Positions 13,254-60,484 of a DNA stretch of 64,000 nucleotides are shown one piece after another. A program made the translations under genes and the position numbers. The notes beneath the pieces were generated by a model, which was given only the letters and a program-made list of their open reading frames with translations, was not told the DNA's origin and ran no database searches. Origin of the DNA: Phycisphaerales bacterium AB-hyl4 (lineage in GTDB: Bacteria > Planctomycetota > Phycisphaerae > Phycisphaerales > Phycisphaeraceae); the NCBI GenBank assembly GCA_041821185.1, contig JBGUBD010000016.1:20755-84754 (forward strand). Direction: 5' to 3'. The stretch's first letter is position 1. The number at the start of each line of letters is the position of its first letter.

Positions 13254-13324
13254 CAATAGCCCTCCGTGGAAGCGGAGGGTTAGCGTCGTGTGGACCAAAC
13301 CCCACGCTCCCGCGTGGGGCTATG
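13254..13324. repeat. Paired inverted hairpins (ATAG-headed composite unit), copy 1
   Basis: The unit opens with CAATAGCCC, forms one hairpin (CCCTCCG stem, TGGAAG loop), then a second hairpin in opposite orientation (CCCCACGC, loop TCCC, GCGTGGGG) that ends GGGCTAT. The outer ends are inverted repeats of each other. A closely matching 72-nt unit lies at 21285-21356, and a truncated single element at 63121. The organisation resembles REP/BIME pairs, in which a short head such as GTAG precedes a palindrome. Confidence 0.7.
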
Positions 13325-13351
13325 GGGGGAACAACCTCTGCCCGACGCCAT

Positions 13352-13385
13352 AAAAAACGGCGGACGACGCGTACGTCGTCCGCCG
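13352..13385 (-). terminator. Intrinsic terminator of the DUF2203 gene
   Basis: Read on the minus strand, a 12-bp perfect stem (CGGCGGACGACG, 4-nt loop, CGTCGTCCGCCG) is followed directly by six T residues. It lies 44 nt past the stop of the DUF2203 gene and is a textbook rho-independent terminator. Confidence 0.85.
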
Positions 13386-13428
13386 GGGGTGGTGGTTCGG
13401 TTGTGAGCTCTCGGGCCGAGGCGGGCGG

Positions 13429-13890
13429 TCAGTCTTCGTCGTCCGCGGCGGTCTTGACGTTTTCCAGCGTGTCGACCGACTGTCGGCCGGCGTAGCCCGC
13501 GTCGGTCTCATGCCAGTAGCCTACCTCCGGCTCGCCCGGATGCCAGCATAGTTGCACTTCCCGACCGTCGTGCACCGCGGGGAAGTCGATCAGCCCCTTC
13601 TCGAAATCCTTCAACTCGACGCCCACGGCGTGCAGCTCGTCGACCAGCGCGCTGAGCCGATCCATCGCCGTCTCATATCGGGCCTCGGCCGTCTCGCTGT
13701 CGCCGCCGGTGTCGGCCGCCTGCTCCACCTCGCGGCGGAGGTCGACGATTCGGCTGTAAACCTCGGCAACGTCTTTCACAATACGCTGCACGTAGGGCAA
13801 CGCGCGGTTCGCCTCCTCGACCGAGAAGTAGCGCTTATCGGGGAACGGGTCGTGGTGAGTCGTCGTCATAAAAGCATTTTCAGCGGACAT
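13429..13890 (-). CDS. DUF2203 family protein
   Basis: The 153-residue soluble protein matches the DUF2203 pattern: an N-terminal RYFSVEEANRALPYVQRIV, a helical middle, then the signature VGVELKDFEKGLIDFPAVHDGREVQLCWHPGEPEVGYWHETDAGYAGRQ region split across about residues 90-135. ATG 13890 is used; ATG 13869 (MTTTHHDPF) is an alternative. No function is established for this family. The gene stands alone with its own terminator downstream. Confidence 0.85.
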   Translation of the reverse strand: MSAENAFMTTTHHDPFPDKRYFSVEEANRALPYVQRIVKDVAEVYSRIVDLRREVEQAADTGGDSETAEARYETAMDRLSALVDELHAVGVELKDFEKGLIDFPAVHDGREVQLCWHPGEPEVGYWHETDAGYAGRQSVDTLENVKTAADDED

Positions 13891-14150
13891 CGTTGGGCCT
13901 CGCAGGGTTTGAGACTGGATTGTCTACAAAAGCGGTCATAAGTAACGTACCGCCCGGCTTCCTTGTCTTCCTCCAAGGCCAGCTCACGCCTGCCTTTGAG
14001 GCTTGCCCCAAGACACGATAGGCTCGCGCCTCGGAGGATGGCGAGGCCGACGGATCACAAATCCGTTACACGTCCTATCGGCTTACCGGTCGATCCGCTT
14101 TGAAAAGCGATGCCGCCATCCTCCGGGCACGACCTGATAAGCTTTTGGGC

Positions 14151-15335
14151 ATGAGCCCTCAGCCACCTGAACAACTCGCCAACCCGCCAGAAGATTCCCG
14201 CCAACCGCGTCCGCCAGCCGACGCCGATCGGCAGGCGGAGGTCATCATCGTCGGGGCCGGGCCGATCGGCCTGGAGCTGGCCGTCGTCCTCAAACACATG
14301 GGCGTCGACTACCTCCACCTCGACGCTGGACAGGTCGGCCAGACCGTCACCCGGTACCCCCAGCAGACCCGCTTCTTCTCCAGCCCGGAACGCATCGCCA
14401 TCGCAGGCGTCCCCCTTACCCTGTCCGACCACAATCGCGCCAGCCGAGAGCAATATCTCGCGTACCTCCGCAGCGTGGTTCAGCAGTTCGACCTCAAGGT
14501 CAACACCTTCGAGCGCGTGACCGACATCAAGCAAAGCGACGGCGAATACCGCTTCACGCTCCACACCGACCGCCGGGGCACGCCTCACACATATCAGGCG
14601 AAACACCTCGTGCTGGCTGTCGGCGATATGCACGGCCCGCGCAAGATCAACGTGCCCGGCGAAGATCTGCCCCATGTCAGCCACTACTTCGACGAGCCGC
14701 ATCGCTACTTCAACCAGCGGCTGCTCATCGTCGGCGGGCGCAACTCGGCGGTCGAAACCGCGCTGCGCTGCTATCACGCCGGTGCTCAGGTGAGCCTCAG
14801 CTATCGCTGGGGCGGGTTTGACGAACGACTGGTCAAGTATGGCATCCTGCCGGAGATCAAAGCGCTCATCGAGCATGAGCGCGTGAAGTTTTACCCCTAC
14901 ACGCTCGTCCGCGAGATCACCGCGGAGCACGTCGTGCTGGAAGACTCCGGCCTGCGCGGGCAGGACGCCGGGCCGGGCGTGACGGACCTTGCCACGACGC
15001 CCGCCGAGGCCAGCGGCGAGTTGACGCACGTGCCCGCTGACTTTGTGTTGCTGCTGACCGGCTATGTGATGAACACCGAGTTGTTCGCGATGGCGGGTGT
15101 GGAGCTGGTGGGTGAGAACTGTTCGCCGAAGCATGACCTGTCGACGATGGAGACGAACGTGCCGGGCCTGTATGTCGCAGGCACGGCCGCGGCGGGCACG
15201 CAAGTGCGGTTCCGGTTGTTCATTGAGAACTGTCACCCGCACGTGGCGAAGATCGCCCGCAATATCACGGGCCAACAGCCGCCGATGCACCTGATCAACC
15301 AGGCGGCGAAGCAGTTCGCGTTGCCGGAGAGTTAA
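14151..15335 (+). CDS. ypdA: YpdA/Bdr-like FAD-dependent NAD(P)H oxidoreductase
   Basis: The 394-residue flavoprotein has an N-terminal Rossmann FAD site (IIVGAGPIGLELAVVLKHMG), TRFFSSPERIAIAGVP, VPGEDLPHVSHYF, a second NAD(P)H site (LLIVGGRNSAVETALRC) and METNVPGLYVAG near the C-terminus. These match B. subtilis YpdA, the bacillithiol disulfide reductase, segment by segment. YpdA has no CxxC redox pair and none is seen here. ATG 14151 is chosen because the upstream in-frame extension is low-complexity and precedes the conserved fold. The thiol substrate in this organism is unknown. Its stop shares a TTAA with the convergent PEP-CTERM gene. Confidence 0.85.
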   Translation: MSPQPPEQLANPPEDSRQPRPPADADRQAEVIIVGAGPIGLELAVVLKHMGVDYLHLDAGQVGQTVTRYPQQTRFFSSPERIAIAGVPLTLSDHNRASREQYLAYLRSVVQQFDLKVNTFERVTDIKQSDGEYRFTLHTDRRGTPHTYQAKHLVLAVGDMHGPRKINVPGEDLPHVSHYFDEPHRYFNQRLLIVGGRNSAVETALRCYHAGAQVSLSYRWGGFDERLVKYGILPEIKALIEHERVKFYPYTLVREITAEHVVLEDSGLRGQDAGPGVTDLATTPAEASGELTHVPADFVLLLTGYVMNTELFAMAGVELVGENCSPKHDLSTMETNVPGLYVAGTAAAGTQVRFRLFIENCHPHVAKIARNITGQQPPMHLINQAAKQFALPES

Positions 15336-16090
15336 GGGCGATTTAGCCGCGAAGCGCAGCGGAGTTCGGGTCGGCGTCGCCACAGCAGCGTGATGCCACT
15401 GAGACCTAGCAAGGCGAGCGAGCCGGGTTCCGGAACGATGCTGATCGCATCGAAGGCGATAAAGGCGTCTCGTTGGCGGGCGCGGGCAAAGATGAAGTCG
15501 ATGTAATGCACGTTCTCAAAGTCCGCGTCGAAGCTGGAGAACGGGAGAATCAGGTCGAACGCACCGTCGTTGCCTGGCACTTCAAATGGAACGGCACTGG
15601 CGCCGTCCTCGTCAGCGACGCGAATCATGTCGTGAAGCGGCGAGAGATTTTCATTTTCGAAATTCGTGCGGATGTTATGAATTTTGATCGCGTTGCCGTG
15701 CTGTGTGGCATCAAAGTTCAGTGGCGTGTCTTCAGAACCGTACCGAACGATGAAATAGGTGATTGGTCGGTCATCCCCGTCGACTGTGGCGCTAGTGACA
15801 CGCAGGCGACCATCGATAGCATCCGGATGAATAGTCAATGTCGTAGGCGTTACGACCGAATCGCTTGTGACCGTCGCCACGAACAACTCGCGCGTACCAG
15901 CAACGACGTGATTGGGGTCGAGCCCGGTTTGCGTTTCGCTGACTCCGCCGCCAAGGTTCGAGCCTTCGCTGCCAAGGGTAATGGGGCCCTGCGTGAAGTC
16001 GTCGATCATCAACGCATACGCAGGGTTATGCGATGTAGCCAAGGCAATCAGGCCCGCAGCGACCAGGCACTTCCATTCTTGCATGCTCAT
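15332..16090 (-). CDS. PEP-CTERM sorted exported protein
   Basis: The 252-residue protein has a signal peptide (CLVAAGLIALATSHNPAYA), a beta-rich extracellular middle with no recognised enzyme motif and a C-terminal PEP-CTERM signal: VPEPGSLALLGLSGITLL followed by WRRRP. Exosortase (not in this window) would cleave at the PEP motif. I prefer ATG 16090 over GTG 16093, with AAGGGG about 8 nt upstream. The tail after the Arg cluster (ELRCASRLNRP) is longer than usual and is encoded by a partial CGCGGCTAAAT-type repeat. Its TAA overlaps the TAA of the convergent reductase gene. Confidence 0.85.
   Translation of the reverse strand: MSMQEWKCLVAAGLIALATSHNPAYALMIDDFTQGPITLGSEGSNLGGGVSETQTGLDPNHVVAGTRELFVATVTSDSVVTPTTLTIHPDAIDGRLRVTSATVDGDDRPITYFIVRYGSEDTPLNFDATQHGNAIKIHNIRTNFENENLSPLHDMIRVADEDGASAVPFEVPGNDGAFDLILPFSSFDADFENVHYIDFIFARARQRDAFIAFDAISIVPEPGSLALLGLSGITLLWRRRPELRCASRLNRP
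15341..15365 (-). repeat. Partial CGCGGCTAAAT-type repeat within the PEP-CTERM gene 3' end
   Basis: On the minus strand the segment reads CTCCGCTGCGCTTCGCGGCT followed by AAATC. It matches the tail of the repeats at 1716 and 22557 and the half-element at 45963. It encodes the last residues of the PEP-CTERM protein. Confidence 0.5.
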
Positions 16091-16295
16091 CACAGGTTCC
16101 CCTTCTGTTTGAAGTCAGCGATTGCATCCCGGTGTCACAATGCCTGCGACTTGCAACTCGTGCCCGAAGCGTATTCGGCAGAGGCGGCGATGACGCATGG
16201 CTGAACGATTGTCTATATCGATTCAATGTAGCCTCCATAATCGCCAGCGGCAAGAGGGGGATCATATTCAACCGGGCGGCTGAACGGCATCCACA

Positions 16296-16331
16296 AACAA
16301 AAGAAGCCCACGGCGTGACGCCGTGGGCTTC
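16296..16331 (-). terminator. ahcY terminator formed by a 29-nt palindromic repeat
   Basis: A perfect palindrome at 16303-16331 has 14-bp arms (GAAGCCCACGGCGT) and a single-base centre. Read on the minus strand it is followed by TTTTGTTTG, making a good intrinsic terminator 30 nt after the ahcY stop. The hairpin is one copy of the 29-nt dispersed family also found at 21185, 32783, 36145, 40872, 50105 and 60455. Confidence 0.8.
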
Positions 16332-16360
16332 GGGTGGTTTAACACGAATTGTTGTTCGAA

Positions 16361-17833
<1,473 letters not shown>

Positions 17834-18924: not shown

Positions 18925-18928
18925 CACT

Positions 18929-20259: not shown

Positions 20260-21153
20260 ATGAGCATTCGCATCGTCATGCTGGGCGACATCGTCGGCAC
20301 GGCCGGCCGACTGGCGTTGGCCCAGTGCATGCCCGCGCTGCGCGAGCGCTATCAGCCGAACCTTGTCATCGCTAACGCTGAGAATGCCGCCAACGGCTCG
20401 GGGCTGACGCCTGCGCTGCACAGCAAGCTCGCGGCGATGGGCATCGACGGGATGACCCTCGGCGACCACGTCTATAAGAAGAAGGAAATCATGCGGACGT
20501 TGGAGGAGGACCCGACGCTCATCCGCGCGGCGAACCTGCCTGCCTCCGCTGCGGGCCGGGGCTGGATGCGGTTGACGCCGACGACGTCCGTGGCTGCCGG
20601 CGGCGAGCGCGGGCCGAGTGTTTATGTGATTACGCTGCTCGGCCGAGTGTTCATGAATCTGCCGGTGAACCATCCGTTCGAGGTGATCGAGCAGGTGCTC
20701 AGCCAACTGCCTTCGCGCGAGTCGATCGTGCTCGTTGAGATGCACGCCGAGGCGACCAGCGAAAAGGTGGCGATGGGTTGGTATCTCAACGGCCGAGTGG
20801 CGGCGGTGCTCGGCACGCACACGCATATCCCCACCGCCGACGCTCGCATTCTGCCTGCCGAGCCGCAGCACGGCCGACCGGGCGGCTCGCCCACGCTCGG
20901 CGCTGCGGGTGGCACGGCGTACATCACCGACCTGGGCATGACCGGCCCGTACGACTCGATCCTCGGCCGACGCATCGACCGCGTGCTGCATCACATGACC
21001 ACCAGCATGCACGCGCCTTACGACGTGGCCGAGGGCAACCCGCGCGTCTGCGGTGTGTCGATCGACGTTAACGAAACCAGCCTGCGCGCTACCGCCATCG
21101 AACGCATCGACATGCCAGCCGACGTCACCAAGCCGCCGTTCACCAGCGGCTGA
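20260..21153 (+). CDS. ymdB: YmdB-family metallophosphoesterase
   Basis: The 297-residue protein matches the YmdB/TIGR00282 family: MLGDIVGTAGRLALAQCMP at the N-terminus, IANAENAANGSGLT, MTLGDHVYKKKEI, VEMHAEATSEKVAMG, VLGTHTHIPTADARILP and ITDLGMTGPYDSILG. The metal ligands Asp, Glu, Asn and His are all visible. In B. subtilis YmdB acts on 2',3'-cyclic nucleotides and affects RNA turnover and development. The family often has GNHVWDKKEI where this protein has GDHVYKKKEI. It follows the LysM gene by 51 nt. Confidence 0.9.
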   Translation: MSIRIVMLGDIVGTAGRLALAQCMPALRERYQPNLVIANAENAANGSGLTPALHSKLAAMGIDGMTLGDHVYKKKEIMRTLEEDPTLIRAANLPASAAGRGWMRLTPTTSVAAGGERGPSVYVITLLGRVFMNLPVNHPFEVIEQVLSQLPSRESIVLVEMHAEATSEKVAMGWYLNGRVAAVLGTHTHIPTADARILPAEPQHGRPGGSPTLGAAGGTAYITDLGMTGPYDSILGRRIDRVLHHMTTSMHAPYDVAEGNPRVCGVSIDVNETSLRATAIERIDMPADVTKPPFTSG

Positions 21154-21184
21154 TACGGATCAAACATGAGTCTCGCATGCGATG

Positions 21185-21213
21185 GAAGCCCACGGATTGA
21201 ATCCGTGGGTGTC
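21185..21213. repeat. 29-nt palindrome family, ATTGAAT-centre copy
   Basis: GAAGCCCACGG, centre ATTGAAT, then CCGTGGG and TGTC: the right end differs from the family GCTTC in two bases. The outer arms match the copies at 16303 and elsewhere while the 7-nt centre is swapped. Confidence 0.7.
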
Positions 21214-21284
21214 TTTGCACGCAATGCGCTTGCGGATGCGACTTTTTATCTGCTTTCTGATTAACCATCGTGCTCATGCTCACT

Positions 21285-21356
21285 CAATAGCCCCACGCGG
21301 AAGCGTGGGGTTTGGCGCATTTGCGGGCAACCCCCGGCTTCCGCCGGGGGCTATTG
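21285..21356. repeat. Paired inverted hairpins (ATAG-headed composite unit), copy 2
   Basis: CAATAGCCCC opens the first hairpin (CCCCACGC, loop GGAA, GCGTGGGG); a 14-nt spacer follows; the second hairpin (CCCCCGGC, loop TTCC, GCCGGGGG) closes with CTATTG. The outer CAATAGCCCC and GGGGGCTATTG are inverted repeats. The layout equals that of 13254-13324, with different stem sequences but the same head and loop. Confidence 0.75.
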
Positions 21357-30808: not shown

Positions 30809-33800
30809 TCAGTAGCGGTCGACGCTGTCGCAGACTTCGCCGTCGTGCAGGCGCGACGCGAAGCCGAGCATGTTGCCCCGGTCGGCAGACGCTTCGTCGT
30901 GCATCAGTTCCTCGGCGGCGGCGGCGCTGCTGACGAGCTTCGGCGGGCCCATGAGCAAGCAGTTGACCCGGCCTTCGGGGGCTCGCTTGAGCACCTGTTT
31001 CACCGCGTCGACCAGTTCCCGGTCCACGCCGACGCGCAAGCCGTTGACGCGCAGGCTCACCACCCGCCCGGCCTGGTGCAGTTCGAGCACGACGTCGGCG
31101 GCGGGCTCGCCGTTGCGCGGGCCGGCTTGCCGGAGTACTTCGCGCAGTCGGCCGAACTCGCCGTTGAAGGCAGTGCCCTTCTCCACCGGGCGCGGGTCGT
31201 GCACGACGATCCTCACCTGCTGCGTCAGCCGAGTCTCGGCTTGCTCGATGGGTACGACCTGGTCGACGACGATGCTGGGCTCTTCGCGTCGGCGGTCGAC
31301 CTTGCCTTTGAGGAAGACGACCTTGTCCAGTTCCAGCGCGTGATAGGTGGTCGCGTATGTGTCGGCGAACACGACGGCGTCGATGCTGTTCTTGCCATCT
31401 TCGATGGTGAGCATCGCCATCTTCTGCCCGGCGGAGCGGCCTTTCTTGACGAAGGTCGGACGCACGCGGGTGAGCATGCCGCCGACGGTGACCTGCACCT
31501 CCGCTGCGAGTTGGCTGATCTGTTCGATGGTGCAACTGCTGTAGCGGTAAAGCGCGTCGCCGTGCTGGTCGAGCGGGTGGCTGGAAACGTAGAAGCCGAG
31601 CACTTCCTTTTCGTACTTGAGCGCTTCGTTGGTGGACCACGGCTCGACGCGCGGCAGCGTGACGGCGGGGGCCTCGACGACGGTGCCGGTGTCGGCTTCG
31701 GCTTCCTCGGCGAGGCCACCGAAGAAGTTCATCTGGCCGGACGTGCGGTCTTTCGCGGCGCGTTGGCCGGCCTGAATGGCGGCGTCGAGTGCTTCGAGCA
31801 TGGCGGCGCGGTTTTCGATGCCGTGCACTTCGTCGAACGCGCCGCACTTGATGAGGGCTTCGATGGTCGAGCGGTTGACCGAGCCGAGCGGGACGCGTTC
31901 GCAGAAGTCGTAGAGGTTTTTGAATGCACCGTCTTTGTTGCGTTCTTCGAGGATGGCGCGGATGGCTTTTTCGCCCACGCCCTTGACGGCGGAGAGGCCG
32001 AAGCGGATGTGGCCGTGGCTGGGGTCGCGTTGCTCGCCGGGGTTGAACACGACGCCGAAGCCGATGTCGGAGAGGTTGATGTCCGGCGGCTTGACTTCGA
32101 TGCCCGCGTTGCCGTTGGGCAGGCGTGTGCGTTTGCAGGCGTCGATGTACTCGACGACTTTGTCGGTGCTCACCGATTCGTAGGTGAGCAGGGCGGCCAT
32201 GTAGTGCAGGGGGAAGTAGGTTTTGAGGTAGGCGGTCTGGTAGGCGACGATCGCGTAGCCGGTGGAGTGCGACTTGTTGAAGCCGTAGCCTGCGAACTTG
32301 AGGATGAGGTCGTAAAGCTCTTCGGCTTGCGCGGCGATCATGCCTTTGGTCTGCGAGCCTTTGACGAACTTCTCCCGGCCGGCGTTGATGGTCTTTTCTT
32401 TTTTCTTCGAGATCGCCTTGATGAGCGTGTAGGCTTCGCGCAGCGGGATGCCGCCGAGCTGGTTGGCGACCTGCATGACCTGTTCCTGGTAGACCATGAT
32501 GCCGTAGGTCTCTTCGGTCAGGCGGTCGACGACTTCGTGGACTTTGGGCACGTTCTCCCGGCCGTGCTTTCGGTTGTTGTAGTTGGGGATCAGCTCCATC
32601 GGGCCGGGGCGGTAGAGCGCGTTGGCGGCGATGAGGTCTTCGAGGCGGTCGGGCTTCATGGACATGAGCAGGTTGCGCATGCCGCCGGACTCAAACTGGA
32701 ACACGCCCGCCGTGTCGCCGCGCTGGAAGAGTGCGAGCACGTTGGGGTCGTCGTAGGTGAGGCGTTCGAGGTCGAGGGGGTCGACGCCCACGCCGTCACG
32801 GCGTGGGCTTCCGATTGCTTCCCGGATTTCGTTCTCATCGAAGCTTTGTCGGATGAGTGATTTGGCGCGTTCGATGATGCTGAGCGTGCGCAGGCCGAGG
32901 AAGTCCATCTTGAGCAGGCCAACCTTTTCGCACGTCGGGCCGTCCCATTGCGTGACGAGTTGATCCGTGCCGGCCGGCTGATAGAGCGGGACGATGTTTT
33001 CCAGCGGCTGGGTCGCCATGACCAGCGCACAGGCGTGGACGCCGGCGTGTCGCGCGAGGCCTTCGAGTCGACGGGCCGTGTCGATCATCGCGCGATGCTG
33101 CACGCTGTCGCCGTAGAGTTTTTTAAGGTCCGGCTCCTGATCGAGCGCCTTGTCGATGGTCGTGCCGAGCCCGTCGCCGACGAGCTTGCAGACCTTGTCG
33201 ACTTCGCTCAGGGGCACGTCGAGCACGCGGCCGACGTCGCGGATGGCGGCCTTGGCTTTGAGGACGTTGAAGGTGATGATCTGCGCGACGTAGCCATACT
33301 TTTCGCGGACGTATTCGATGATCTGTCCGCGGCCGTCCTGGCAGATGTCGATATCGATATCGGGGTATTCGGAGCGGTCGGGGTCGGTGAAGCGTTCAAA
33401 GAGCAGGCCGTACTTGACCGGGCATGCGTTGGAGATGCCCAGCACGTAGCCGACCATCGTGCCGACGCCCGAGCCGCGGGCGTTACAGGGGATGCCGTTG
33501 GCGCGGGCGTAGTTGACGCAGTCCCAGACGATGAGGAAGTAGGCGCTGATGAGCTTGTCCGCGAGCACCTGAAGTTCGCGTTCGAGGCGGGCGCGAATTT
33601 CGTCGGTGATGCCGTCTTTGCCGTACCGCCAGATGAGGCCCGCTTCGCAGAGATCGCGCAGGGCGTCGTCGCAGCCTTCTTTGAGGGCGTCGGCCGTGAG
33701 GTGCTTGTCCTTGCCTTCATCGAAGGGGACAAGGTCATACTGCGAGCCGAACTTTGTGAACCATTCGGTGGAGCCTTCGGGCAAAGTGGGATGTGGGATG

Positions 33801-34744
33801 TGGGATGTGGGATGTTTTTCAACATCCGCCATCCGCGATTCCACACCCGACATTTTCTCGATCTTGACCACCGGCGCGTGGTTGGCGGTGAAGTCGAGTT
33901 CGAGCTCGCACATCTCGGCGATGCGGTTGGTGTTCTCGCAGGCCTCGCGCCACTTGGCGTGGTCCATCGCGGCGTACATCTCGTCGTTGCTCTTGAGGTA
34001 GAGCTGTGTCGGGTACTTCATGCGACTTTCGTCGCTGACGAGCTTGCCGGTGGAGATGCAGCAGAGGCAGTCGTGCGGCTGGTGGTCGTCCTTGAGCAGG
34101 AAGTGCACATCGTTGGTCGCAACGAGGCCGACGCCCATGCGGTCGGCGAGGTCGATCAGCTCGGGGTTGACCTGGTCCTGCTCGCGGATGTGCTTCTGCA
34201 CTTCAATGAAGAACTTGTCCGGGCCGAAGACGTCGAGGTATGTCTCGGCGATGGTCTTGGCGAGCTTGCGGTCGTCCTTCATGAGGGCGGAGGGGATCTC
34301 TCCGCCGAGGCAGGCGCTGGTGGCGATGATGCCTTCGCTGTGGGCCTTGAGCGTTTCCTTGTCGATGCGTGGCTTGTAGTAGAAGCCTTCGCGGTAGGCG
34401 ATTGACGAGAGTTTTAGGATGTTGCGATAGCCCGCGTGGTTTTGTGCGAGCAGCAGCAGGTGGTAGCCGCCGTCTTTGTTGCCTGTGCTCGTGCGGTCGC
34501 GGCGGTCGCCGGGGGCCATGTACGCTTCGATGCCGACGATGGGCTTGACGCCTGCGTCGACGGCTTTGCTGTAGAAGTCGACGACGCCGAAGAGGCAGCC
34601 GTGGTCGGTGATGGCGATGGACGACTGGCCGAGCTCTTTGGCGCGTTTGACGAGGTCGCCCGTTCGGCAGGCGCCGTCGAGCAGGGAGTACATCGAGTGC
34701 ACGTGAAGGTGCACGAACGGGTTGGTTTTTGTGTTGCTCACCAT
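30809..34744 (-). CDS. dnaE: DNA polymerase III alpha subunit (replicative polymerase) with two repeat-derived insertions
   Basis: The 1311-residue protein starts with a PHP domain (FVHLHVHSMYSLLDGA), has the polymerase palm with catalytic aspartates in YPDIDIDIC (about residue 460) and GVHACALVM, the finger region FGGYG-like KFAGYGFNKSHSTGYA, helix-hairpin-helix elements and a C-terminal OB fold (VTVGGMLTRVRPTFVKKG). Two stretches look foreign: about residues 298-321 (MSGVESRMADVEKHPTSHIP onward) and about 645-655 (SPRRDGVGVDP). Their DNA is palindromic repeat sequence, and family alignment would run straight across them. Both keep frame, and all core motifs remain, so the gene should be functional. 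ATG 34744 is clear. Confidence 0.96.
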   Translation of the reverse strand: MVSNTKTNPFVHLHVHSMYSLLDGACRTGDLVKRAKELGQSSIAITDHGCLFGVVDFYSKAVDAGVKPIVGIEAYMAPGDRRDRTSTGNKDGGYHLLLLAQNHAGYRNILKLSSIAYREGFYYKPRIDKETLKAHSEGIIATSACLGGEIPSALMKDDRKLAKTIAETYLDVFGPDKFFIEVQKHIREQDQVNPELIDLADRMGVGLVATNDVHFLLKDDHQPHDCLCCISTGKLVSDESRMKYPTQLYLKSNDEMYAAMDHAKWREACENTNRIAEMCELELDFTANHAPVVKIEKMSGVESRMADVEKHPTSHIPHPTLPEGSTEWFTKFGSQYDLVPFDEGKDKHLTADALKEGCDDALRDLCEAGLIWRYGKDGITDEIRARLERELQVLADKLISAYFLIVWDCVNYARANGIPCNARGSGVGTMVGYVLGISNACPVKYGLLFERFTDPDRSEYPDIDIDICQDGRGQIIEYVREKYGYVAQIITFNVLKAKAAIRDVGRVLDVPLSEVDKVCKLVGDGLGTTIDKALDQEPDLKKLYGDSVQHRAMIDTARRLEGLARHAGVHACALVMATQPLENIVPLYQPAGTDQLVTQWDGPTCEKVGLLKMDFLGLRTLSIIERAKSLIRQSFDENEIREAIGSPRRDGVGVDPLDLERLTYDDPNVLALFQRGDTAGVFQFESGGMRNLLMSMKPDRLEDLIAANALYRPGPMELIPNYNNRKHGRENVPKVHEVVDRLTEETYGIMVYQEQVMQVANQLGGIPLREAYTLIKAISKKKEKTINAGREKFVKGSQTKGMIAAQAEELYDLILKFAGYGFNKSHSTGYAIVAYQTAYLKTYFPLHYMAALLTYESVSTDKVVEYIDACKRTRLPNGNAGIEVKPPDINLSDIGFGVVFNPGEQRDPSHGHIRFGLSAVKGVGEKAIRAILEERNKDGAFKNLYDFCERVPLGSVNRSTIEALIKCGAFDEVHGIENRAAMLEALDAAIQAGQRAAKDRTSGQMNFFGGLAEEAEADTGTVVEAPAVTLPRVEPWSTNEALKYEKEVLGFYVSSHPLDQHGDALYRYSSCTIEQISQLAAEVQVTVGGMLTRVRPTFVKKGRSAGQKMAMLTIEDGKNSIDAVVFADTYATTYHALELDKVVFLKGKVDRRREEPSIVVDQVVPIEQAETRLTQQVRIVVHDPRPVEKGTAFNGEFGRLREVLRQAGPRNGEPAADVVLELHQAGRVVSLRVNGLRVGVDRELVDAVKQVLKRAPEGRVNCLLMGPPKLVSSAAAAEELMHDEASADRGNMLGFASRLHDGEVCDSVDRY
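32783..32811. repeat. 29-nt palindrome family copy inside dnaE
   Basis: GACGCCCACGCCGT, centre C, ACGGCGTGGGCTTC: same length and ends as the intergenic 29-nt copies (compare 36145, which also begins GACGCCCACG), with the inner stem bases inverted from GG-C to GC-C. It lies wholly within the coding sequence of the replicative polymerase and encodes about ten residues of an extra loop. Confidence 0.75.
33781..33853. repeat. GGGATGT tandem/hairpin repeat inside dnaE
   Basis: On the plus strand TGGGATG is repeated four times at 7-nt spacing (about 33786-33811), then TTTTTCAACATCCGCCATCC forms an imperfect stem with it. The segment encodes about 23 residues (298-321) between KIEK and PEGSTEWF, which are normally close together in DnaE proteins. 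Confidence 0.65.
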
Positions 34745-34910: not shown

Positions 34911-34933
34911 CCCTCTCCCTGGCAGGGAGAGGG
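34911..34933. repeat. CCCTCTCCCT/AGGGAGAGGG hairpin
   Basis: Perfect 10-bp arms flank a GGC loop. No T-tract follows on either strand, which favours a dispersed repeat. Confidence 0.55.
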
Positions 34934-36144: not shown

Positions 36145-36173
36145 GACGCCCACGGATTGAATCCGTGGGCTTC
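36145..36173. repeat. 29-nt palindrome family, ATTGAAT-centre copy 2
   Basis: GACGCCCACGG, centre ATTGAAT, CCGTGGGCTTC. It lies in the divergent region between the methyltransferase and ferredoxin genes (35997-36292), where I see no gene and no strong promoter. Confidence 0.7.
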
Positions 36174-37680: not shown

Positions 37681-37722
37681 AACGATAAAGCCCAGGCATG
37701 GCCATGCCTGGGCTTTATCGTT
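37681..37722. terminator. Perfect 42-bp palindrome, bidirectional terminator between convergent genes
   Basis: Two 21-nt arms (beginning AACGATAAAGCCCAGGCATG) meet with no loop and end in TTTATCGTTT on both strands. It lies 37 nt after the dehydrogenase stop and 28 nt before the convergent DUF4340 stop, so it can end both transcripts. Confidence 0.8.
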
Positions 37723-40871: not shown

Positions 40872-40900
40872 GAAGCCCACGGCGTCACGCCGTGGGCGTC
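40872..40900. repeat. 29-nt palindrome family, CGTCACG-centre copy
   Basis: GAAGCCCACGG, centre CGTCACG, CCGTGGGCGTC. It begins 5 nt after the DUF4126 stop codon. No T-tract follows on the plus strand. Confidence 0.7.
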
Positions 40901-50003: not shown

Positions 50004-50104
50004 GGCGTGCTCCTCGATTTAAGGGTCACGTGATTGTAGCGCTGCTGCCGCTGCGGACTAGATGGTTCAAATCGGTGGGGCGGAAATGAAACTCAGATGT
50101 GGGG

Positions 50105-50133
50105 GAAGCCCACGGCGTCACGTCGTGGGCTTC
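50105..50133. repeat. 29-nt palindrome family, CGTCACG-centre copy 2
   Basis: GAAGCCCACGG, centre CGTCACG, TCGTGGGCTTC with one mismatch in the right arm. It lies between mrpG (43 nt past its stop) and the gerW start. On the minus strand, downstream of mrpG, it has no strong T-tract. Confidence 0.65.
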
Positions 50134-50175
50134 GACCTTTTACGAATAGCGCTAAGTTTGACGGGTAATCCGCAA

Positions 50176-50565
50176 TCACTCGCCCGGGTGGGCCTGGGGC
50201 GCGTTGCCCGTGTCGGCGGGGGTCGCGTGCTCGGCGTGCTCGTCGCTGAGCGTGCCGTCCCATTGCGGGGTCTTCACAGCGAGGGCGGCCTTGGCCAGCA
50301 GGTGTGCCCCGACCGGGTTGGAGACGAACACGAACAACATGGTCAGCACGGCTCGCACGAGCACGCCGACGTCGCCGAGGTGAAACACCGCCGCCAGCAG
50401 CAGCCCGAGCAGGCCGAGCGTCGAGCACTTGGTCGCGGCGTGCAGCCGGTTGTACGCGTCGGGCATCCGCACCGTGCCGATGGCACCGACGAGCATGAAA
50501 AACAGCCCGATCGCCATGCATATCAGCGCCAGCAGATCCGCGATGATCAGCAGTGCATTGCTCAC
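50176..50565 (-). CDS. mrpG: Mrp antiporter subunit G
   Basis: The 129-residue membrane protein has three hydrophobic segments and the MrpG/MnhG pattern FFMLVGAIGTVRMPDAYNRLHAATKCSTLG, followed by a hydrophilic His/Glu-rich tail. It is the last gene of the Mrp operon and overlaps mrpF by 4 nt. MrpG is one of the seven subunits needed for Na+/H+ exchange. Confidence 0.93.
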   Translation of the reverse strand: MSNALLIIADLLALICMAIGLFFMLVGAIGTVRMPDAYNRLHAATKCSTLGLLGLLLAAVFHLGDVGVLVRAVLTMLFVFVSNPVGAHLLAKAALAVKTPQWDGTLSDEHAEHATPADTGNAPQAHPGE

Positions 50566-53151: not shown

Positions 53152-53552
<401 letters not shown>

Positions 53553-53556
<4 letters not shown>

Positions 53557-56536: not shown

Positions 56537-56703
56537 GCGCTTAACTCAATCTTGATAGCGAAACTTGCCATCTGCCCCGCCGACGTTTGACGGACGATTG
56601 CCTTTACATCGGTCCAACGGGGTCGACGAACCGAACTTTCGTCCGATAAGGCCGCCCGGCTCCCTCGCGGGCGCCCGGCGTGGCCGTGGTCGGCGTCCAT
56701 TGC

Positions 56704-56751
56704 CCCCGGTTTTCCCTCGGATTCCCCCGGATTCCCCCGGAATCCCCCGGA
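56704..56751 (-). repeat. Tandem ATTCCCCCGG decamers, G-quadruplex-capable on the mrpA sense strand
   Basis: Three consecutive 10-nt units (ATTCCCCCGG, ATTCCCCCGG, AATCCCCCGG) are preceded by two degenerate units (CCCCCGGTTTT, CCCTCGG). On the minus strand this gives GGGGG runs spaced by 5 nt, a quadruplex-capable pattern about 170 nt upstream of the mrpA start. Confidence 0.6.
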
Positions 56752-56902
56752 CACGAATTTCCCCGTGCACCCCCGCATTAAACCCCTCTATCGGCGAACA
56801 CCCCGGCCATTCGCCCGAAAAGGGGGGGTATCATGGCAGATTTGGGTTGATTTCGCCAGTTTCGCGGTTGGGGGGCGGATTTTAGTGGGTTTGGGGGGTG
56901 AA

Positions 56903-56927
56903 GCTGAGCGACTTACAGTCGCTCAGC
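56903..56927. repeat. Perfect hairpin GCTGAGCGACT / AGTCGCTCAGC
   Basis: 11-bp arms flank a TAC loop. The left flank reads GAA before GCTG, resembling the GAAG head of the 29-nt family, but the stem is unrelated. No T-tract follows. Confidence 0.55.
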
Positions 56928-57063
56928 CTCCGGGACACACACCAAGCCTCCACGCCTCATTATCGTTGGGGTGCCTTTCTTTCCCCAGCGCCTGGCGTGC
57001 GTTAAACTGATGTGCTTGGCGTCGGGCGGCTACGGGGCGGCTCGGCGGCATATAGGGATGCTC

Positions 57064-58896
57064 ATGGCGACGCCACCGGACGACAAAACGCCAGCCGACC
57101 ACGGCGGCCCGTCGGTACGGATCGGCCCTGACTCGCCTGCCGACGCAGCGAAGGGGGGCGGTCACGCTGCGCCAACGCCGCGCCCGACCTACGACCTTGC
57201 CGACGACGACGCTGCGGGGGGCGATCACGATTCGACGTCTACCGAGCCGTCGACGCGGACGGGTCATTCGCCGTCGGCGATGGGCGGTGGCAGCAACGAC
57301 ACGAGCGCTGCCTCGTCGGGCGAGTCGCGGGCGGCCCGCCGGGCCCGTCGGCTGCCGCGGAAGACGGATCGACTGATGGCGTGGCTGGCGGCGCTGCTGT
57401 GTGCGGCGGTGGCGGCGGTGCCGTTGACGGCGGGGCTGTGGCATCCGGACACGCTGCACCCGCTCGAAGCCGAGGCGTTATCGCGATCATACGAGACCTG
57501 GCAGCAGCAGGCGGATTTGCCCGTCGCGCCGGGCAGCCTCGAACGGTGGGTGCCGGTGCTCGATGATCAGCAACGGCTGGCTGACCCGCCGGGGGGGACG
57601 TGGCTGCACATGGTCGCGTTCAGCGTGCTGCAATCGAACGTTCACAGTGACGACCTGCTGCATCATGCCCGGTTGGTGTCGGTGGTGCTGGCGCTGCTGA
57701 CGGTGGTGGCGGTGTTCTGGACCGGCATGTCGATCGGCGGCATTTTGCCCGCGACGCTGGCGGGCCTGATTGCCGGGGCGTTGCCCGTGCTGCTTTTCTT
57801 CGGCCGACTGGCGAACGAGCAACTGGCCAGCGTCGCGCTGGTCACGCTGGCGATTGCGGCAGCCATCTGGGCGCTGCGGCCGCTGCGCCCGGCGAATCAC
57901 CTGGTCCGGCAGGGGCTTGGCTGGGCATTTTGCGGGCTGCTGCTGGGCATGGCGACGCTCACCGGCGGGCTGCCGGCGACGGTGGCGGTGATCGTGCCGC
58001 TGGCGCTGATCATCATTCTTTGCCCCGGCCGTATCGGGCATACGCTGGGTCTGGTCGCGGCGCTGTTCATCGGTGGACTGGTGGCGACGCCCTGGGCGCT
58101 GCACGTGCACGGCGAAGACCCGGAAGTGTGGCGGCAGTGGACGGCGGCGCTCGTGCCGCCGGAGGACTTCGACTGGCAGATGATGTTGATGCTGTCGGCC
58201 CAGCGGCTGGGGTTGGCGTTGCTGTTGGCGCTGCCTTGGACGGTGTGGCTGGTGGCGGGGCTGTTGCAGCCGTTCAGTACGTCGTCGGCCGGGGCGCGGA
58301 CGCGGCTGTTTATTGGTTGGGTGTGGTTCATGTCGGCGTTGCTGCTGGTGTTGCTGCTGCCCGGCCGGGGGCAGGTGGGCGAGTTGCTGCTGCTCTTGCC
58401 GCCGACGGCGCTGGTGACGGCGCAGGTAATCCGGCAATTCCGCGAGCTGGCGGCGGAGGGGCGGGACGCGCGGATCTGGGTGTGGCTGTGCTGGCCACAC
58501 GCGGCGGTGCTGCTGGTGGTGTCGCTGGCTGGGCCGACGGCGATGCACTTCCAGCCATGGCTGGTGAGCGAGGGTTGGCTGGATCAGTCAATCACCGCGA
58601 CGATGCACCCGATGTACTGGGTGGGCATGGCGGTCTGCCTGGTGCTGCTCGTGGGGCTGAGCCTGCGATATGTCGTCCGGCGATACCCGGGCAAGGCGAC
58701 GGTGTGCTGGGCGTTATGGGCGATGCTGGCCTTTTCCGCGGTGATTTACCCTGCGAGCATGGGGCCGCTGATGCAAAGCCGATCGCTCGCGTTCGTCAAG
58801 GCTGACGATGTGGCGGGGCATCTTTCGAGTTCGGCCCTACAATCGCGCGATGCTGTCAGCTCGCGCGACGCTCGCGGGGGCGCCGACGGCCGATAG
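57064..58896 (+). CDS. Membrane glycosyltransferase, ArnT/PMT-like
   Basis: The 610-residue protein has a disordered, charged N-terminus of about 100 residues, then roughly ten to twelve membrane helices starting LMAWLAALLCAAVAAVPLTAGLW. The first periplasmic loop has HPDTLHPLEAEALSRSYETW, where ArnT/PMT enzymes carry an Asp/Glu pair, and ATPWALHVHGEDPEVW is typical of the family. Such enzymes move sugars from undecaprenyl-phosphate donors to lipid A or proteins. ATG 57064 has AGGGA 7 nt upstream; ATG 57058 is an alternative. It starts an operon with a donor-making GT2 and a LAB_N protein. Confidence 0.78.
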   Translation: MATPPDDKTPADHGGPSVRIGPDSPADAAKGGGHAAPTPRPTYDLADDDAAGGDHDSTSTEPSTRTGHSPSAMGGGSNDTSAASSGESRAARRARRLPRKTDRLMAWLAALLCAAVAAVPLTAGLWHPDTLHPLEAEALSRSYETWQQQADLPVAPGSLERWVPVLDDQQRLADPPGGTWLHMVAFSVLQSNVHSDDLLHHARLVSVVLALLTVVAVFWTGMSIGGILPATLAGLIAGALPVLLFFGRLANEQLASVALVTLAIAAAIWALRPLRPANHLVRQGLGWAFCGLLLGMATLTGGLPATVAVIVPLALIIILCPGRIGHTLGLVAALFIGGLVATPWALHVHGEDPEVWRQWTAALVPPEDFDWQMMLMLSAQRLGLALLLALPWTVWLVAGLLQPFSTSSAGARTRLFIGWVWFMSALLLVLLLPGRGQVGELLLLLPPTALVTAQVIRQFRELAAEGRDARIWVWLCWPHAAVLLVVSLAGPTAMHFQPWLVSEGWLDQSITATMHPMYWVGMAVCLVLLVGLSLRYVVRRYPGKATVCWALWAMLAFSAVIYPASMGPLMQSRSLAFVKADDVAGHLSSSALQSRDAVSSRDARGGADGR

Positions 58897-58917
58897 TCAG
58901 GAAGGGAGCGGAAACAA

Positions 58918-59784
58918 ATGTCACTCGCCTCGGTGCAACCCGATGGCGCAGGCCTGAGCGAAGCTCGGCCGGTGTTGTCGATCGTCGTGCCCGCGCTCGA
59001 TGAGGCGGACAACGTCGGCCCGCTGGTCGAGCAGGTCGAGCAGGCGATGCGCGACGCGGCCGTCGATGCGGAGTTGATCGTCGTCGACGACGGCTCGCGC
59101 GATCAGACGCTGGCCCGGTTGCAGGCGTTGCAGCAGGGTCGGCCGTGGCTTCGTGTGTTGCACCGCGATCGGCCGCAGGGCCAGTCCGCCGCGATGCACG
59201 CCGGCATCCAGCTCGCCCGCGGCGAGTACGTCGCCACGCTCGACGCCGACTTACAGAACGACCCGGCCGACCTGCCGCTCATGCTCGCCCGCCTGCGCGA
59301 GACCGACGCCGACATGGTGCAGGGCGACCGCTCCGCGAACCGGCGCGATCATGCGATTCGGCGGATCGGCAGCCGCATCGGTCGCGGTGCCCGCCGATGG
59401 CTGCTTGGCGATGGCGTACGCGACACCGGCTGCTCGGCGCGCGTGCTGCGGGCCGACCTTGCTCGGCAGTTTCCGCTTCAGTTTCGCGGCATGCACCGTT
59501 TTCTCCCGGCGTACGCGGGCATGCTGGGCGCACGCGTGATCGAAATGCCCGTCCACCACCGCCAGCGACACAGCGGCAAGACGAAGTATGGCATGGGCCT
59601 GCTCAGCCGCGGGCCCGCGGGCCTGGTCGACTGCTTTGCCGTGCGATGGATGGCGGCCCGCTACCGCGACCCGCTCGCGACACTGCCTGCCAACGGTGAC
59701 AGTGGCAGTGACAGTGACGCTGCCGGTGACGACCGACACACCGGCGACGGCCGCGATCGCCGTGACGGAGACGACCGATCATGA
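58918..59784 (+). CDS. Glycosyltransferase family 2, dolichyl/undecaprenyl-phosphate sugar synthase type
   Basis: The 288-residue cytosolic GT-A enzyme has VLSIVVPALDEADNVGPLVEQVE, the nucleotide-sugar site LIVVDDGSRDQTLARL, the DxD motif TLDADLQNDPADLP, and RDTGCSARVLRADLAR. It most resembles polyprenyl-phosphate mannosyl/glucosyltransferases (DPM1/ArnC type) but has no C-terminal membrane helices. The C-terminal 35 residues are a Ser/Asp/Gly-rich tail encoded by TGACAGTGGCAG-type repeats. It would supply a lipid-linked sugar to the membrane glycosyltransferase upstream. It overlaps the next gene by 4 nt. Confidence 0.88.
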   Translation: MSLASVQPDGAGLSEARPVLSIVVPALDEADNVGPLVEQVEQAMRDAAVDAELIVVDDGSRDQTLARLQALQQGRPWLRVLHRDRPQGQSAAMHAGIQLARGEYVATLDADLQNDPADLPLMLARLRETDADMVQGDRSANRRDHAIRRIGSRIGRGARRWLLGDGVRDTGCSARVLRADLARQFPLQFRGMHRFLPAYAGMLGARVIEMPVHHRQRHSGKTKYGMGLLSRGPAGLVDCFAVRWMAARYRDPLATLPANGDSGSDSDAAGDDRHTGDGRDRRDGDDRS

Positions 59785-60383
59785 CGCGTACCGCCCGGCT
59801 AAGCCTCGTTGCAGCCTTGCTGCTGACGTGCACGCTCGCCGTGGTCAACGTCGGCTGCGATATCGTCGCCGACAACGACGTCAGCAACGCGATCGACCTG
59901 CACGATCGGCTGGTCGACATCGAGTTGCACGAAGAGGCCGGCCAGCAATACATCGTGCTCCAGCACAACGGCGAAGAGCAGCGGCTCACCCCCGCGCAGT
60001 ACATGCTTGCCCTGCAACAGCAACGCGACCGCCAGCGCGACAAGGGCTGGCTGTTCGTGCTGTTTAACATCACAAGCTGGGTTGGCGTGCTGTGGGTGGC
60101 GCTGGGCTTGAGCGGCCAGTTGATCTTCACCGGCCGCATGATCCTTCAGTGGCTCGCCAGCGAGAAGGAACGCCGATCCGTCGTGCCGCCGGCGTTCTGG
60201 TGGATGAGCCTCATCGGCGCGAGCATGCTGCTGGCCTACTTTATGTGGCGAAAAGACATCGTCGGCGTCATCGGCCAAGGCGGCGGTTGGCTCATCTACG
60301 CCCGCAACCTGTGGATGATCCACCGCCCGGCGTTCGTCGCCCCCGAGCCCGACGCGATGCCACGCGAGCCTTCCGCGTCGTAA
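59781..60383 (+). CDS. Lipid-A-disaccharide synthase N-terminal domain (LAB_N) membrane protein
   Basis: The 200-residue protein has an N-terminal hydrophobic segment (LVAALLLTCTLAVVNVGC, possibly a lipobox ending in Cys), a periplasmic part (about 30-85), and the LAB_N core WVALGLSGQLIFTGRMILQWLASEKERRSVVPPAFWWMSLIGASMLL with YFMWRKDIVGVIGQGGGWLIYARNLW. LAB_N proteins often accompany ArnT and GT2 genes and are thought to act on lipid A. ATG 59781 overlaps the GT2 stop. Confidence 0.87.
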   Translation: MTRTARLSLVAALLLTCTLAVVNVGCDIVADNDVSNAIDLHDRLVDIELHEEAGQQYIVLQHNGEEQRLTPAQYMLALQQQRDRQRDKGWLFVLFNITSWVGVLWVALGLSGQLIFTGRMILQWLASEKERRSVVPPAFWWMSLIGASMLLAYFMWRKDIVGVIGQGGGWLIYARNLWMIHRPAFVAPEPDAMPREPSAS

Positions 60384-60453
60384 ACATCATGTTGAGCCCC
60401 TGCGCCCACGATACGGATTTACCCTTCAAACTCGGGCTCGGTGTGTATAAGAC

Positions 60454-60484
60454 GGAAGCCCACGGCGTGACGCCGTGGGCTTCC
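60454..60484. repeat. 29-nt palindrome family, CGTGACG-centre copy 2
   Basis: GGAAGCCCACGG, centre CGTGACG, CCGTGGGCTTCC, extended to 31 nt by one extra pair. It lies between the convergent LAB_N and SPOR genes. No T-tract follows on either strand. Confidence 0.75.

What the first reader, a model, noticed from the sequence alone, without database searches (positions are those of the whole stretch)
13254..60484. 29-nt palindrome family with constant arms and interchangeable 7-nt centre
Seven copies (16303, 21185, 32783, 36145, 40872, 50105, 60455) share GA[A/C]GCCCACG at the left and CGTGGGCTTC-like right arms and always measure 29 nt, while the centre is CGTGACG, CGTCACG or ATTGAAT. In six copies the stems stay fully paired except for one or two bases. 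Copies lie in gaps after or before genes in both orientations, one acts as the ahcY terminator, and one lies inside dnaE. Fixed length with a swapped centre suggests conversion or mobilisation by an enzyme that recognises the hairpin, like RAYT/REP systems. No such transposase gene is in this window.
Basis: partly seen in the sequence, partly recalled or inferred. Interest (0 to 1): 0.75.

Follow-up and report, generated by a model that had tools for sequence, protein, structure and literature searches.

The report
Jumping terminator hairpin with transposase
A 29-letter DNA hairpin is scattered over a hundred times through this bacterial genome, mostly right after genes where it can stop transcription, and two related bacteria carry a small transposase-like gene that has the same hairpin at both ends and in its middle, so the hairpin is probably a mobile element that was turned into a transcription stop signal.

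Summary
Observation confirmed: all seven 29-nt hairpins are present. The genome has 111 exact GCCCACG-N9-CGTGGGC copies (reversed control 0); 15 of 61 genomes, own included, have the stricter form. The "swapped centre" is the two innermost base pairs plus a 3-nt loop; these pairs change together on both sides (69/72 and 66/72 paired, shuffle means 29-30). Copies favour gene 3' ends, above all convergent gaps (42/105 versus 31/262, P 6e-9), as two-way terminators would. (1) 40 of 137 copies lie in a ~100-nt imperfect palindrome with TACGGAT...ATCCGTA ends and some 3-bp direct repeats, MITE-like, not found in 60 relatives. (2) Two relatives carry a RAYT-like HUH-motif gene (the one tested has no Pfam or NCBIfam hit) with the hairpin upstream, in frame inside, and over its stop codon. 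Hairpins in UvrA and DnaE overlap gaps against solved homologues, which argues for insertion. Best reading: an untagged REP/RAYT-type system whose REPs serve as terminators. No such transposase was found in this genome, which was only partly searched for it. New variant of a known kind.

The parts
16303..16331 (-). core hairpin, bare; 3' of ahcY (gene 16361-17833, minus strand), followed on the minus strand by TTTTGTTT: terminator form
   Evidence: the ahcY ortholog in G014 also has the hairpin downstream
21185..21213 (+). core hairpin, 1 mismatch, inside a half-preserved long element
21148..21245 (-). long (MITE-like) element, degenerate on one side; its intact end TACGGAT begins directly after the TGA stop (21151-21153) of the YmdB-like gene 20260-21153
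   Evidence: 43 bits, E 1e-8; model range; distance 0; sequence; Pfam YmdB
32783..32811 (-). core hairpin in frame inside dnaE (30809-34744, minus strand); overlaps a 17-residue stretch absent from the two printed alignments to solved homologues
36145..36173 (+). core hairpin, bare, between divergent gene calls
40872..40900 (.). core hairpin, bare; begins 5 nt past the stop of the DUF4126 gene (plus-strand ORF ending 40867); my gene caller wrongly put an antisense gene here
50105..50133 (-). core hairpin in a degenerate long element, between convergent genes
50068..50177 (-). long element, degenerate
   Evidence: 57.7 bits, E 1.1e-12
60455..60483 (+). core hairpin at the centre of a full long element
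60412..60514 (+). long element, 103 nt; no target duplication visible (CGA / TAA)
   Evidence: (101.5 bits)
63091..63109 (+). solo end of the long element (TTGCGGATTGGACATGAAC), no core next to it

Best explanation
The 29-nt hairpin is a REP-type dispersed palindrome: a stem of up to 13 bp with constant arms (GCCCACG / CGTGGGC, mostly extended by GAA / TTC), two free inner pairs and a 3-nt loop. It was most likely spread by a single-strand, HUH-tyrosine (RAYT-like) transposase of the kind seen in two relatives, whose gene has the hairpin upstream, in frame between the HUH and Tyr motifs, and across its stop codon. Copies that landed just behind genes were kept, because the hairpin is nearly symmetrical and can end transcription from both sides; that is why it concentrates between convergent genes. 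The inner pairs then drift by paired changes (by selection for pairing, or by template switching between the arms) while the arms are held constant. In this genome some copies sit at the centre of a ~100-nt palindromic element with terminal inverted repeats and, in some copies, 3-bp direct repeats, which looks like a MITE moved by a separate DDE-type transposase that is now missing. Shown: copy number, position bias, pairing, the long element, the RAYT-like cassette in two relatives, hairpins over alignment gaps in UvrA and DnaE. Inferred: that the RAYT-like protein moves the hairpin, that the hairpin terminates transcription, that the long element was moved by a DDE enzyme.
For: 111 exact copies, control 0; 15 of 61 genomes with the stricter form. 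Gaps holding a core: 42 convergent, 53 co-directional, 10 divergent of 105; gaps without, in the same held loci: 31, 165, 66 of 262 (Fisher P 5.6e-9 for convergent, 6e-4 for the lack of divergent); in co-directional gaps 42 copies are nearer the stop and 10 nearer the start; median distance to a facing stop 41 nt. Inner pairs: Watson-Crick in 69/72 and 66/72 unique bare sequences (shuffle means 29.6 and 29.3, maxima 43) and 32/33 for both in long ones. RAYT-like cassette: G014 gene L234:1836-2399 with cores at 1766, 2135, 2387; G011 gene in L024, 63% identical, with cores at 1501, 1886, 2132; the stop codon is the TGA of the hairpin loop in both; relation to Y1_Tnp through L057 (tblastn E 1.6e-16; PF01797 E 1.8e-9) and a four-protein profile that finds other PF01797 loci. 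The UvrA hairpin falls in a 13-residue gap of both printed alignments to solved UvrAs; the DnaE hairpin overlaps a 17-residue gap. At the gene that I take for atpD, G000 has a lone hairpin, while in G014 the whole cassette stands there with its 3' hairpin at about the same distance (29 and 30 nt). T-run behind the hairpin in ahcY (G000, G014) and others.
Against: No RAYT-like gene in 178 held loci of this genome, and PF01797 finds only a truncated fragment; seven small contigs are masked. Both cassettes were found because they lie at hairpins, so 2 of 2 is not an unbiased rate; none of the 30 other Y1_Tnp loci held (L031-L060) has the core. No GTAG or CGTC tag; the CnGA foot of class 3 is only partly enriched (bare G000 36 of 96 on one strand, 17 on the other; G014 12 and 2 of 34; long copies 15 and 14 of 41). 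The outer pairs do not covary: third pair 12/33 in long copies (shuffle mean 15.4), three outer pairs 40, 46 and 35 of 72 in bare copies (shuffle means 39, 50, 35). Many copies have no clear T-run: 11 of 95 bare G000, 14 of 34 G014, 3 of 12 G006 and 9 of 16 G057 copies were polarised by my A/T-run test. Three copies are conserved behind orthologous genes, as plain terminators would be. The DnaE gap is longer than the hairpin and its end is aligned, so insertion there is less clear than in UvrA.
Confidence: 0.6

Rival explanations
1. Ordinary intrinsic terminators. The hairpins are kept in place as two-way terminators and share arms because of common descent and drift, without a mobile phase of their own.
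For: 3'-end and convergent bias; T-runs in several copies; hairpins behind ahcY and two more genes in other genera; compensatory inner pairs.
Against: Ordinary terminators are not expected to share a 7-8 nt arm at over 100 loci (inference): in the window, chosen without regard to cores, 6 of 13 hairpins of stem 9 or more are cores. Hairpins stand over alignment gaps of UvrA and DnaE. Three copies in and around a transposase-like gene in two genera. Some copies have no T-run.
Confidence: 0.2
2. Only the ~100-nt element is mobile (a DDE-type MITE), and bare hairpins are decayed long elements whose flanks are lost.
For: 40 of 137 copies have flank similarity; half-elements and solo ends exist; 5 of 12 copies with both ends good have identical 3-bp flanks (permutation mean 1.5, P 0.009).
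Against: Relatives have the bare hairpin, while the best long-element match in 60 relatives is 44 bits versus 127 here, and the 7 of 11 such matches that I read lack the frame. Bare and long copies differ in their outer bases. No DDE gene with these ends: 4 PF01609 matches at E up to 0.01, none with TACGGAT or ATCCGTA in its locus.
Confidence: 0.12
3. Paired DNA uptake sequences, as in Neisseria, forming terminators.
For: Inverted repeats of a constant arm at gene ends.
Against: Single arms outside hairpins show no large excess: GCCCACGG 72 found, 57 expected; AAGCCCACGG 21 found, 13.5 expected; inner pairs covary.
Confidence: 0.02
4. The changed centres come from arm-to-arm template switching during replication (quasi-palindrome correction and loop inversion) and not from selection or from an enzyme.
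For: In 38 long copies turned by their frame the loop is TGA 24, TCA 8, TTA 5, TAA 1; the mismatched outer form GAC..TTC (15) stands beside both arm-corrected forms GAA..TTC (10) and GAC..GTC (6), while the doubly changed mismatch GAA..GTC is absent.
Against: Not separable from selection here; it does not explain spread to new sites.
Confidence: 0.35

Closest known systems
REP/RAYT systems (REPtrons), above all TnpA-Y1 subclass 2.4 and class 3 of PMC6006769 (passages read)
   Same: Short hairpin in many copies; HUH-Tyr gene flanked by the hairpin; hairpin in frame inside the gene between HUH and Tyr motifs (as described for subclass 2.4); class 3 (24 proteins: 11 Planctomycetes, 6 Acidobacteria, 5 Proteobacteria) has untagged hairpins that can reach high copy number.
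   Different: No GT[AG]G tag; Tyr motif YI[LV][QD]H, not YIxNNP (2.4) nor Y----Q (class 3); class 3 hairpins are called weaker, these are strong; the G014 protein has no Pfam or NCBIfam hit; the gene ends in the hairpin loop.
SPRITE of Streptococcus pneumoniae (PMC3049150, passages read)
   Same: Dispersed terminator-like hairpin, enriched between convergent genes and close to 3' ends, proposed as co-opted terminator.
   Different: AT-rich, 18-bp stem with long U-rich tract, no target duplication established; here GC-rich, with a RAYT-like cassette in relatives.
Rickettsia palindromic elements (properties recalled; only the name seen in PMC10969869)
   Same: Palindromic element in frame inside conserved protein genes.
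   Different: RPEs are longer and have no linked RAYT-like gene (recalled).
MITEs of IS5-family elements with TNA targets (recalled)
   Same: ~100 nt, terminal inverted repeats, 3-bp direct repeats in some copies, no gene.
   Different: No parent element found here; in the one table I saw (PMC3281130) IS427-group elements mostly have 2-bp repeats, which does not support the match; one of five repeats here is TCG, not TNA; the centre is a REP-like hairpin.
GTAG repeats inside long palindromes in Anabaena variabilis (PMC3733652, passages and one section read)
   Same: A REP sits at the centre of a longer palindrome.
   Different: There GTAG dimers; here a single untagged hairpin in an element with likely target duplications.

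Membership tests
REP/RAYT (REPtron) | Short palindrome in high copy, mostly extragenic | tested here: met
   111 exact copies; 112 of 135 held copies outside gene calls
REP/RAYT (REPtron) | RAYT-like (HUH, Tyr) gene flanked on both sides by the same hairpin | tested here: met
   In G014 and G011; not seen in G000
REP/RAYT (REPtron) | Such a gene in the genome that holds the copies | tested here: inconclusive
   None in 178 held G000 loci; PF01797 only a fragment; rest of genome not searched for this subfamily, 7 small contigs masked
REP/RAYT (REPtron) | Protein belongs to Y1_Tnp / TnpA-REP | tested here: inconclusive
   G014 protein: no Pfam hit at E 0.1, no NCBIfam hit at E 1; HUH motif and conserved Tyr seen; homology to PF01797-positive L057 and profile hits
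REP/RAYT (REPtron) | Tetranucleotide tag GTAG/GTGG or CGTC at one foot | tested here: not met
   No such conserved tag in flank profiles; some G000 copies read GGGCGTC at the foot
REP/RAYT (REPtron) | Strand-specific binding and cleavage of the hairpin | not testable with these tools
   needs biochemistry
TnpA-Y1 class 3 | Motifs NHVH, W[TA], YV[VI][AENY]EQ; CnGA foot | tested here: inconclusive
   W-A present, HUH [KT]H[ML]H, Tyr motif differs; CnGA 36 versus 17 of 96 bare, 15 versus 14 of 41 long
MITE (long element) | Terminal inverted repeats | tested here: met
   TACGGAT...ATCCGTA; consensus fold z -5.5
MITE (long element) | Target-site duplication | tested here: met
   3 bp in 5 of 12 copies with both ends good, permutation P 0.009; with 2 of 3 letters allowed 9 of 12 versus 6.9 expected, P 0.10
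MITE (long element) | Autonomous parent with the same ends | tested here: not met
   End-pattern searches of the whole assembly found copies and solo ends but no parent; PF01609 loci lack the ends
Intrinsic terminator | Stable GC-rich hairpin downstream of genes | tested here: met
Intrinsic terminator | T-run behind the hairpin | tested here: inconclusive
   clear in some copies; polarised by A/T-run: 11 of 95 bare G000, 14 of 34 G014, 3 of 12 G006, 9 of 16 G057
DNA uptake sequence | Single motif strongly over-represented | tested here: not met
   held G000 loci only

The most novel reading that the evidence does not exclude
A REP system without the usual tag in which one hairpin plays three roles at once: substrate of a RAYT-like HUH enzyme whose own gene carries it at the start, in its middle and as its stop codon; two-way transcription terminator of the host; and centre of a second, DDE-type MITE whose preferred TNA target is always a stop codon on one of the two strands, so that insertion at a stop codon re-creates it (9 of 32 facing gene ends abut the element exactly). 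A terminator would thus be spread by two unrelated transposition chemistries.
Probability: 0.25. Interest if true: 0.75.

Novelty: new variant of a known kind. Interest (0 to 1): 0.58.

Why it matters
It links three things usually studied apart: REP elements, transcription terminators and MITEs. If the RAYT-like protein acts on this hairpin, it would be an untagged REPtron whose REPs were domesticated as terminators. It also makes an open question testable, how REPs spread and why they are kept: a lone hairpin behind one gene in this genome and the full cassette at the same place in another genus is a ready comparison.

Tried and rejected
DNA uptake sequence: single arms not in large excess. 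Rfam: no family in the window at gathering scores. Viral contigs: no exact copy of the GAAGCCCACGGATTGAATCCGTGGGCTTC form, no relative of the RAYT-like protein; plasmid and phage records: no relative at E 1e-3. Parent IS of the long element: end patterns and PF01609 gave none. Genome contigs with a 20-nt piece of the element end: 2 hits, neither with a core beside it, taken as chance. Weak tblastn matches of the RAYT-like proteins in G000: L080 is driven by the hairpin letters, L100 looks unrelated. My first hairpin scan had a bug that dropped 3-nt loops with complementary ends; repeated correctly. The loop and outer-base counts are not turned by the element's frame; one search gives those. 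My simple gene caller makes errors (it called an antisense gene over the DUF4126 gene), so the 27 of 137 or 23 of 135 'inside' copies are uncertain; only DnaE and UvrA were checked by alignment. Of ten gene calls with a core inside that I scanned, four have a Pfam hit (LptD_N barely over its cut-off, PMT_2, LPG_synthase_TM, DUF1501); they were not tested as insertions. Structure prediction was not run: its stated rule does not cover loci from the genome search or the fetch from genomes. The taxon was not established by a tool; I suspect Planctomycetota from prepilin-type proteins (recalled). The names atpD, gapA and prepilin are recalled from the sequences, not from a search.
Full report
What was checked. 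Allowing three mismatches gives 22 matches in the window against 15.0 expected, which is not significant, so the claim rests on exact copies. In the whole genome (G000) there are 111 exact copies and none of the reversed control; 110 of them were held for study. Among 61 genomes (own plus 60 relatives) the stricter form GCCCACGG-N7-CCGTGGGC occurs in 15: 101 in G000, 40 in G057, 27 in G014, 13 in G045, 12 in G006, 10 in G011, 9 or fewer in the other nine. None of the relatives listed is of the same genus.

What the centre is. The 7-nt centre is two inner base pairs around a 3-nt loop. Over unique sequences the two inner pairs are Watson-Crick in 69/72 and 66/72 bare copies of G000 (500 shuffles: means 29.6 and 29.3, maxima 43), 32/33 and 32/33 in long copies (means 16), 23/26 and 23/26 in G014, 13/13 and 13/13 in G057; G006 is weaker (5/10 and 8/10). 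So the centre changes by paired substitutions. Against a perfect hairpin: the outer pairs do not covary. In long copies the third pair is paired in 12/33 (shuffle mean 15.4); in bare copies the three outer pairs are paired in 40, 46 and 35 of 72 (means 39, 50, 35). Turned by their frame, 38 long copies have the mismatched outer form GAC..TTC 15 times, the two forms with one arm corrected 10 and 6 times, and the doubly changed mismatch never; loops are TGA 24, TCA 8, TTA 5, TAA 1. Template switching between arms would give this pattern.

Where copies lie. With a simple codon-based gene caller (it makes errors), intergenic gaps that hold a core are convergent in 42, co-directional in 53 and divergent in 10 of 105; gaps without a core, in the same held loci, in 31, 165 and 66 of 262 (Fisher P 5.6e-9 for convergent, 6e-4 for divergent). 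In co-directional gaps 42 copies are nearer the stop and 10 nearer the start; 98 of 145 facing stops are within 60 nt. Folded as RNA, six of the seven window copies (dnaE left out) give -22 to -34 kcal/mol; in four no shuffle of 200 folds as well, in two 2 or 3 do. Several copies have a T-run (ahcY here; ahcY and the atpD-like gene in G014; a gapA-like gene in G057; the last two names are recalled), many do not. In the window 6 of 13 hairpins of stem 9 or more are cores.

A longer element. Forty of 137 cores (2 or fewer arm mismatches, at least 8 of 10 pairs) have flanks that match a common frame. Consensus: TACGGATKACCCATCAAACTCGGGCTCTGTGTATGAGGCTGAC-core-TTCGAGCGCACCCGAGATTCATGTCCGATCCGTA, about 100 nt; as RNA it folds with z -5.5. 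A covariance model from ten copies gives, in its first 30 rows for G000, 30 full-length matches with E 8.4e-9 or better, the ten training copies among them. In the 60 relatives the best match is 44 bits against 127 here, with the stricter filters used for that many genomes; of 11 matches outside G000 I read 7: six are bare hairpins at gene ends, and L187 (G035) has a related hairpin, GCCCACGTTC..GAACGTGGGC, in a different setting. Twelve copies have both ends well conserved; five of them have identical 3-bp flanks (TGA, TGA, TCA, TTA, TCG; permutation mean 1.5, P 0.009); with 2 of 3 letters allowed the excess is not significant (9 versus 6.9, P 0.10). In 9 of 32 facing gene ends the element begins exactly at the stop codon; since every TNA triplet is a stop on one strand and intergenic space is short, this may be target preference plus selection. 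No parent with a transposase was found.

The transposase-like gene. In G014 (L234 = G014:C20:58000-61500) a gene at 1836-2399, encoding 187 residues or 197 from an upstream start, lies between cores at 1766 and 2387 and has a core inside at 2135. In G011 (L024 = G011:C65:12616-15638) a homologue, 63% identical, has cores at 1501, 1886 and 2132. In both the stop codon is the TGA of the last hairpin's loop (protein ends KPTP or KPTD), and the inner hairpin is read in frame (KPTPSRRGLR, KPTDSIRGLR) between an HUH motif (THLH, KHMH) and a conserved Tyr. The inner hairpins of the two genera differ by changes on both sides of three pairs. In L234 the PD-(D/E)XK gene upstream also ends in the loop of its hairpin (KKPTD). 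The G014 protein has no Pfam hit (E 0.1) and no NCBIfam hit (E 1), one meaningless PDB match (E 1.5) and one PHROG of unknown function at E 0.34. It is related to L057, a PF01797-positive locus (tblastn E 1.6e-16), and a profile of four such proteins finds further PF01797 loci (L052, L055, L056, L036, L031 and weaker ones). A distant relative stands about 430 nt from a core in G057 (L265). None of the 30 Y1_Tnp loci L031-L060 holds a core. The two cassettes were found because they lie at hairpins, so this is not a rate.

Own genome. PF01797 gives one truncated fragment (positions 2-38 of 121). No homologue of the RAYT-like protein is in 178 held loci of G000 (0.77 Mb with overlaps); the rest was not searched with this protein, and seven small contigs are masked. 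Four contig ends stop within about 115 nt of a hairpin: both ends of C6, the start of C12, the end of C23; the ends of C6 and C23 share TTCGCTRTGCAATCGTGCR after the hairpin, and its exact 15-nt core is in no other held locus, so an unassembled repeat may begin there.

Insertion into genes. In UvrA (L125) the hairpin falls in a 13-residue stretch absent from both printed alignments with solved UvrAs. In DnaE of the window it overlaps a 17-residue stretch absent from the two printed alignments, which are two entries of what is probably one protein; the last residues that it encodes are aligned. This supports insertion over convergence, more firmly for UvrA.

Orthologous places. Flanking proteins of 62 copies in G014, G006 and G057 were compared with those of 135 copies in G000; 21 matches at E 1e-10. 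Close pairs with the hairpin behind both genes: ahcY (73%), the atpD-like gene (85%), one 165-residue protein (73%); the others are at weaker identity, at other gene ends, or prepilin-like (recalled). At the atpD-like gene the lone hairpin of G000 and the 3' hairpin of the G014 cassette stand 29 and 30 nt behind the stop.

Known systems. From passages read: PMC6006769 describes in-frame REP insertions between HUH and Tyr in tnpA-REP of subclass 2.4 and, for class 3 (mostly Planctomycetes and Acidobacteria), flanking hairpins without GTAG, called weaker, that can be in high copy number; PMC3733652 describes GTAG and CGTC REPs, some inside long palindromes (one section); [quoted passage not shown] PMC3049150 describes SPRITE, enriched between convergent genes; PMC8266576 shows that the need for the GTAG motif varies between systems. 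PMC7031236 and PMC3281130 did not show the TNA preference that I recall for IS5-family elements; the latter lists mostly 2-bp repeats for the IS427 group. My searches listed no paper that by title or abstract treats this hairpin; their scope is open-licence PMC only.

Verdict. An untagged REP/RAYT-type system is the best fit, with the hairpins in use as two-way terminators and, in this genome, some of them carried by a MITE-like element. Cleavage by the protein, termination and movement are inferred, not shown.

Noticed in passing
window 13254-13323 and 21285-21354: A second palindromic repeat, CAATAGCCC...GGGGCTAT, made of two hairpins whose stems differ between the copies; the copy at 21285 lies next to a long element. 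A strict pattern found only the 21286 copy in held loci.
   Followed up: partly
window 37681-37722; L007 591, L084 1195, L105 4896: Another repeated terminator-like hairpin, AAAGCCCAGGCATggccATGCCTGGGCTTT (L084 with a shorter stem), four copies in held loci.
   Followed up: no
window 34911-34933; L086, L095 (two), L116, L123, L127: Repeated hairpin CCCTCTCCCT-nnn-AGGGAGAGGG, seven copies in held loci, three followed by aaccggac.
   Followed up: no
L098 start, L102 end, L127 start, L279 end (G000 contig ends): Contigs stop within about 115 nt of a core hairpin; two of these ends share TTCGCTRTGCAATCGTGCR after the hairpin.
   Followed up: partly
L262, L264, L271, L272, L030 (G057): In 5 of 16 G057 copies the hairpin stands near the start of a gene whose product begins like a prepilin (FTLIELLVV; name recalled).
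   Followed up: no
L234 510-1778 (G014): A PD-(D/E)XK_4 nuclease gene ends in the loop of the hairpin that precedes the RAYT-like gene.
   Followed up: no
L187 around 1500-1610 (G035): A related hairpin, GCCCACGTTCtgctGAACGTGGGC, with AACACCAATC on its left and GATTGGTATT on its right: possibly another long palindrome with a hairpin at its centre (by eye; the inverted-repeat tool reports only the inner hairpin there).
   Followed up: partly
L008, L091, L121, L130, L134, L135, L139 and the window 40872 region: Short GTTTC(T/G)AG-like repeat runs (for example gtttctagtttcgagttt) beside many bare copies.
   Followed up: no
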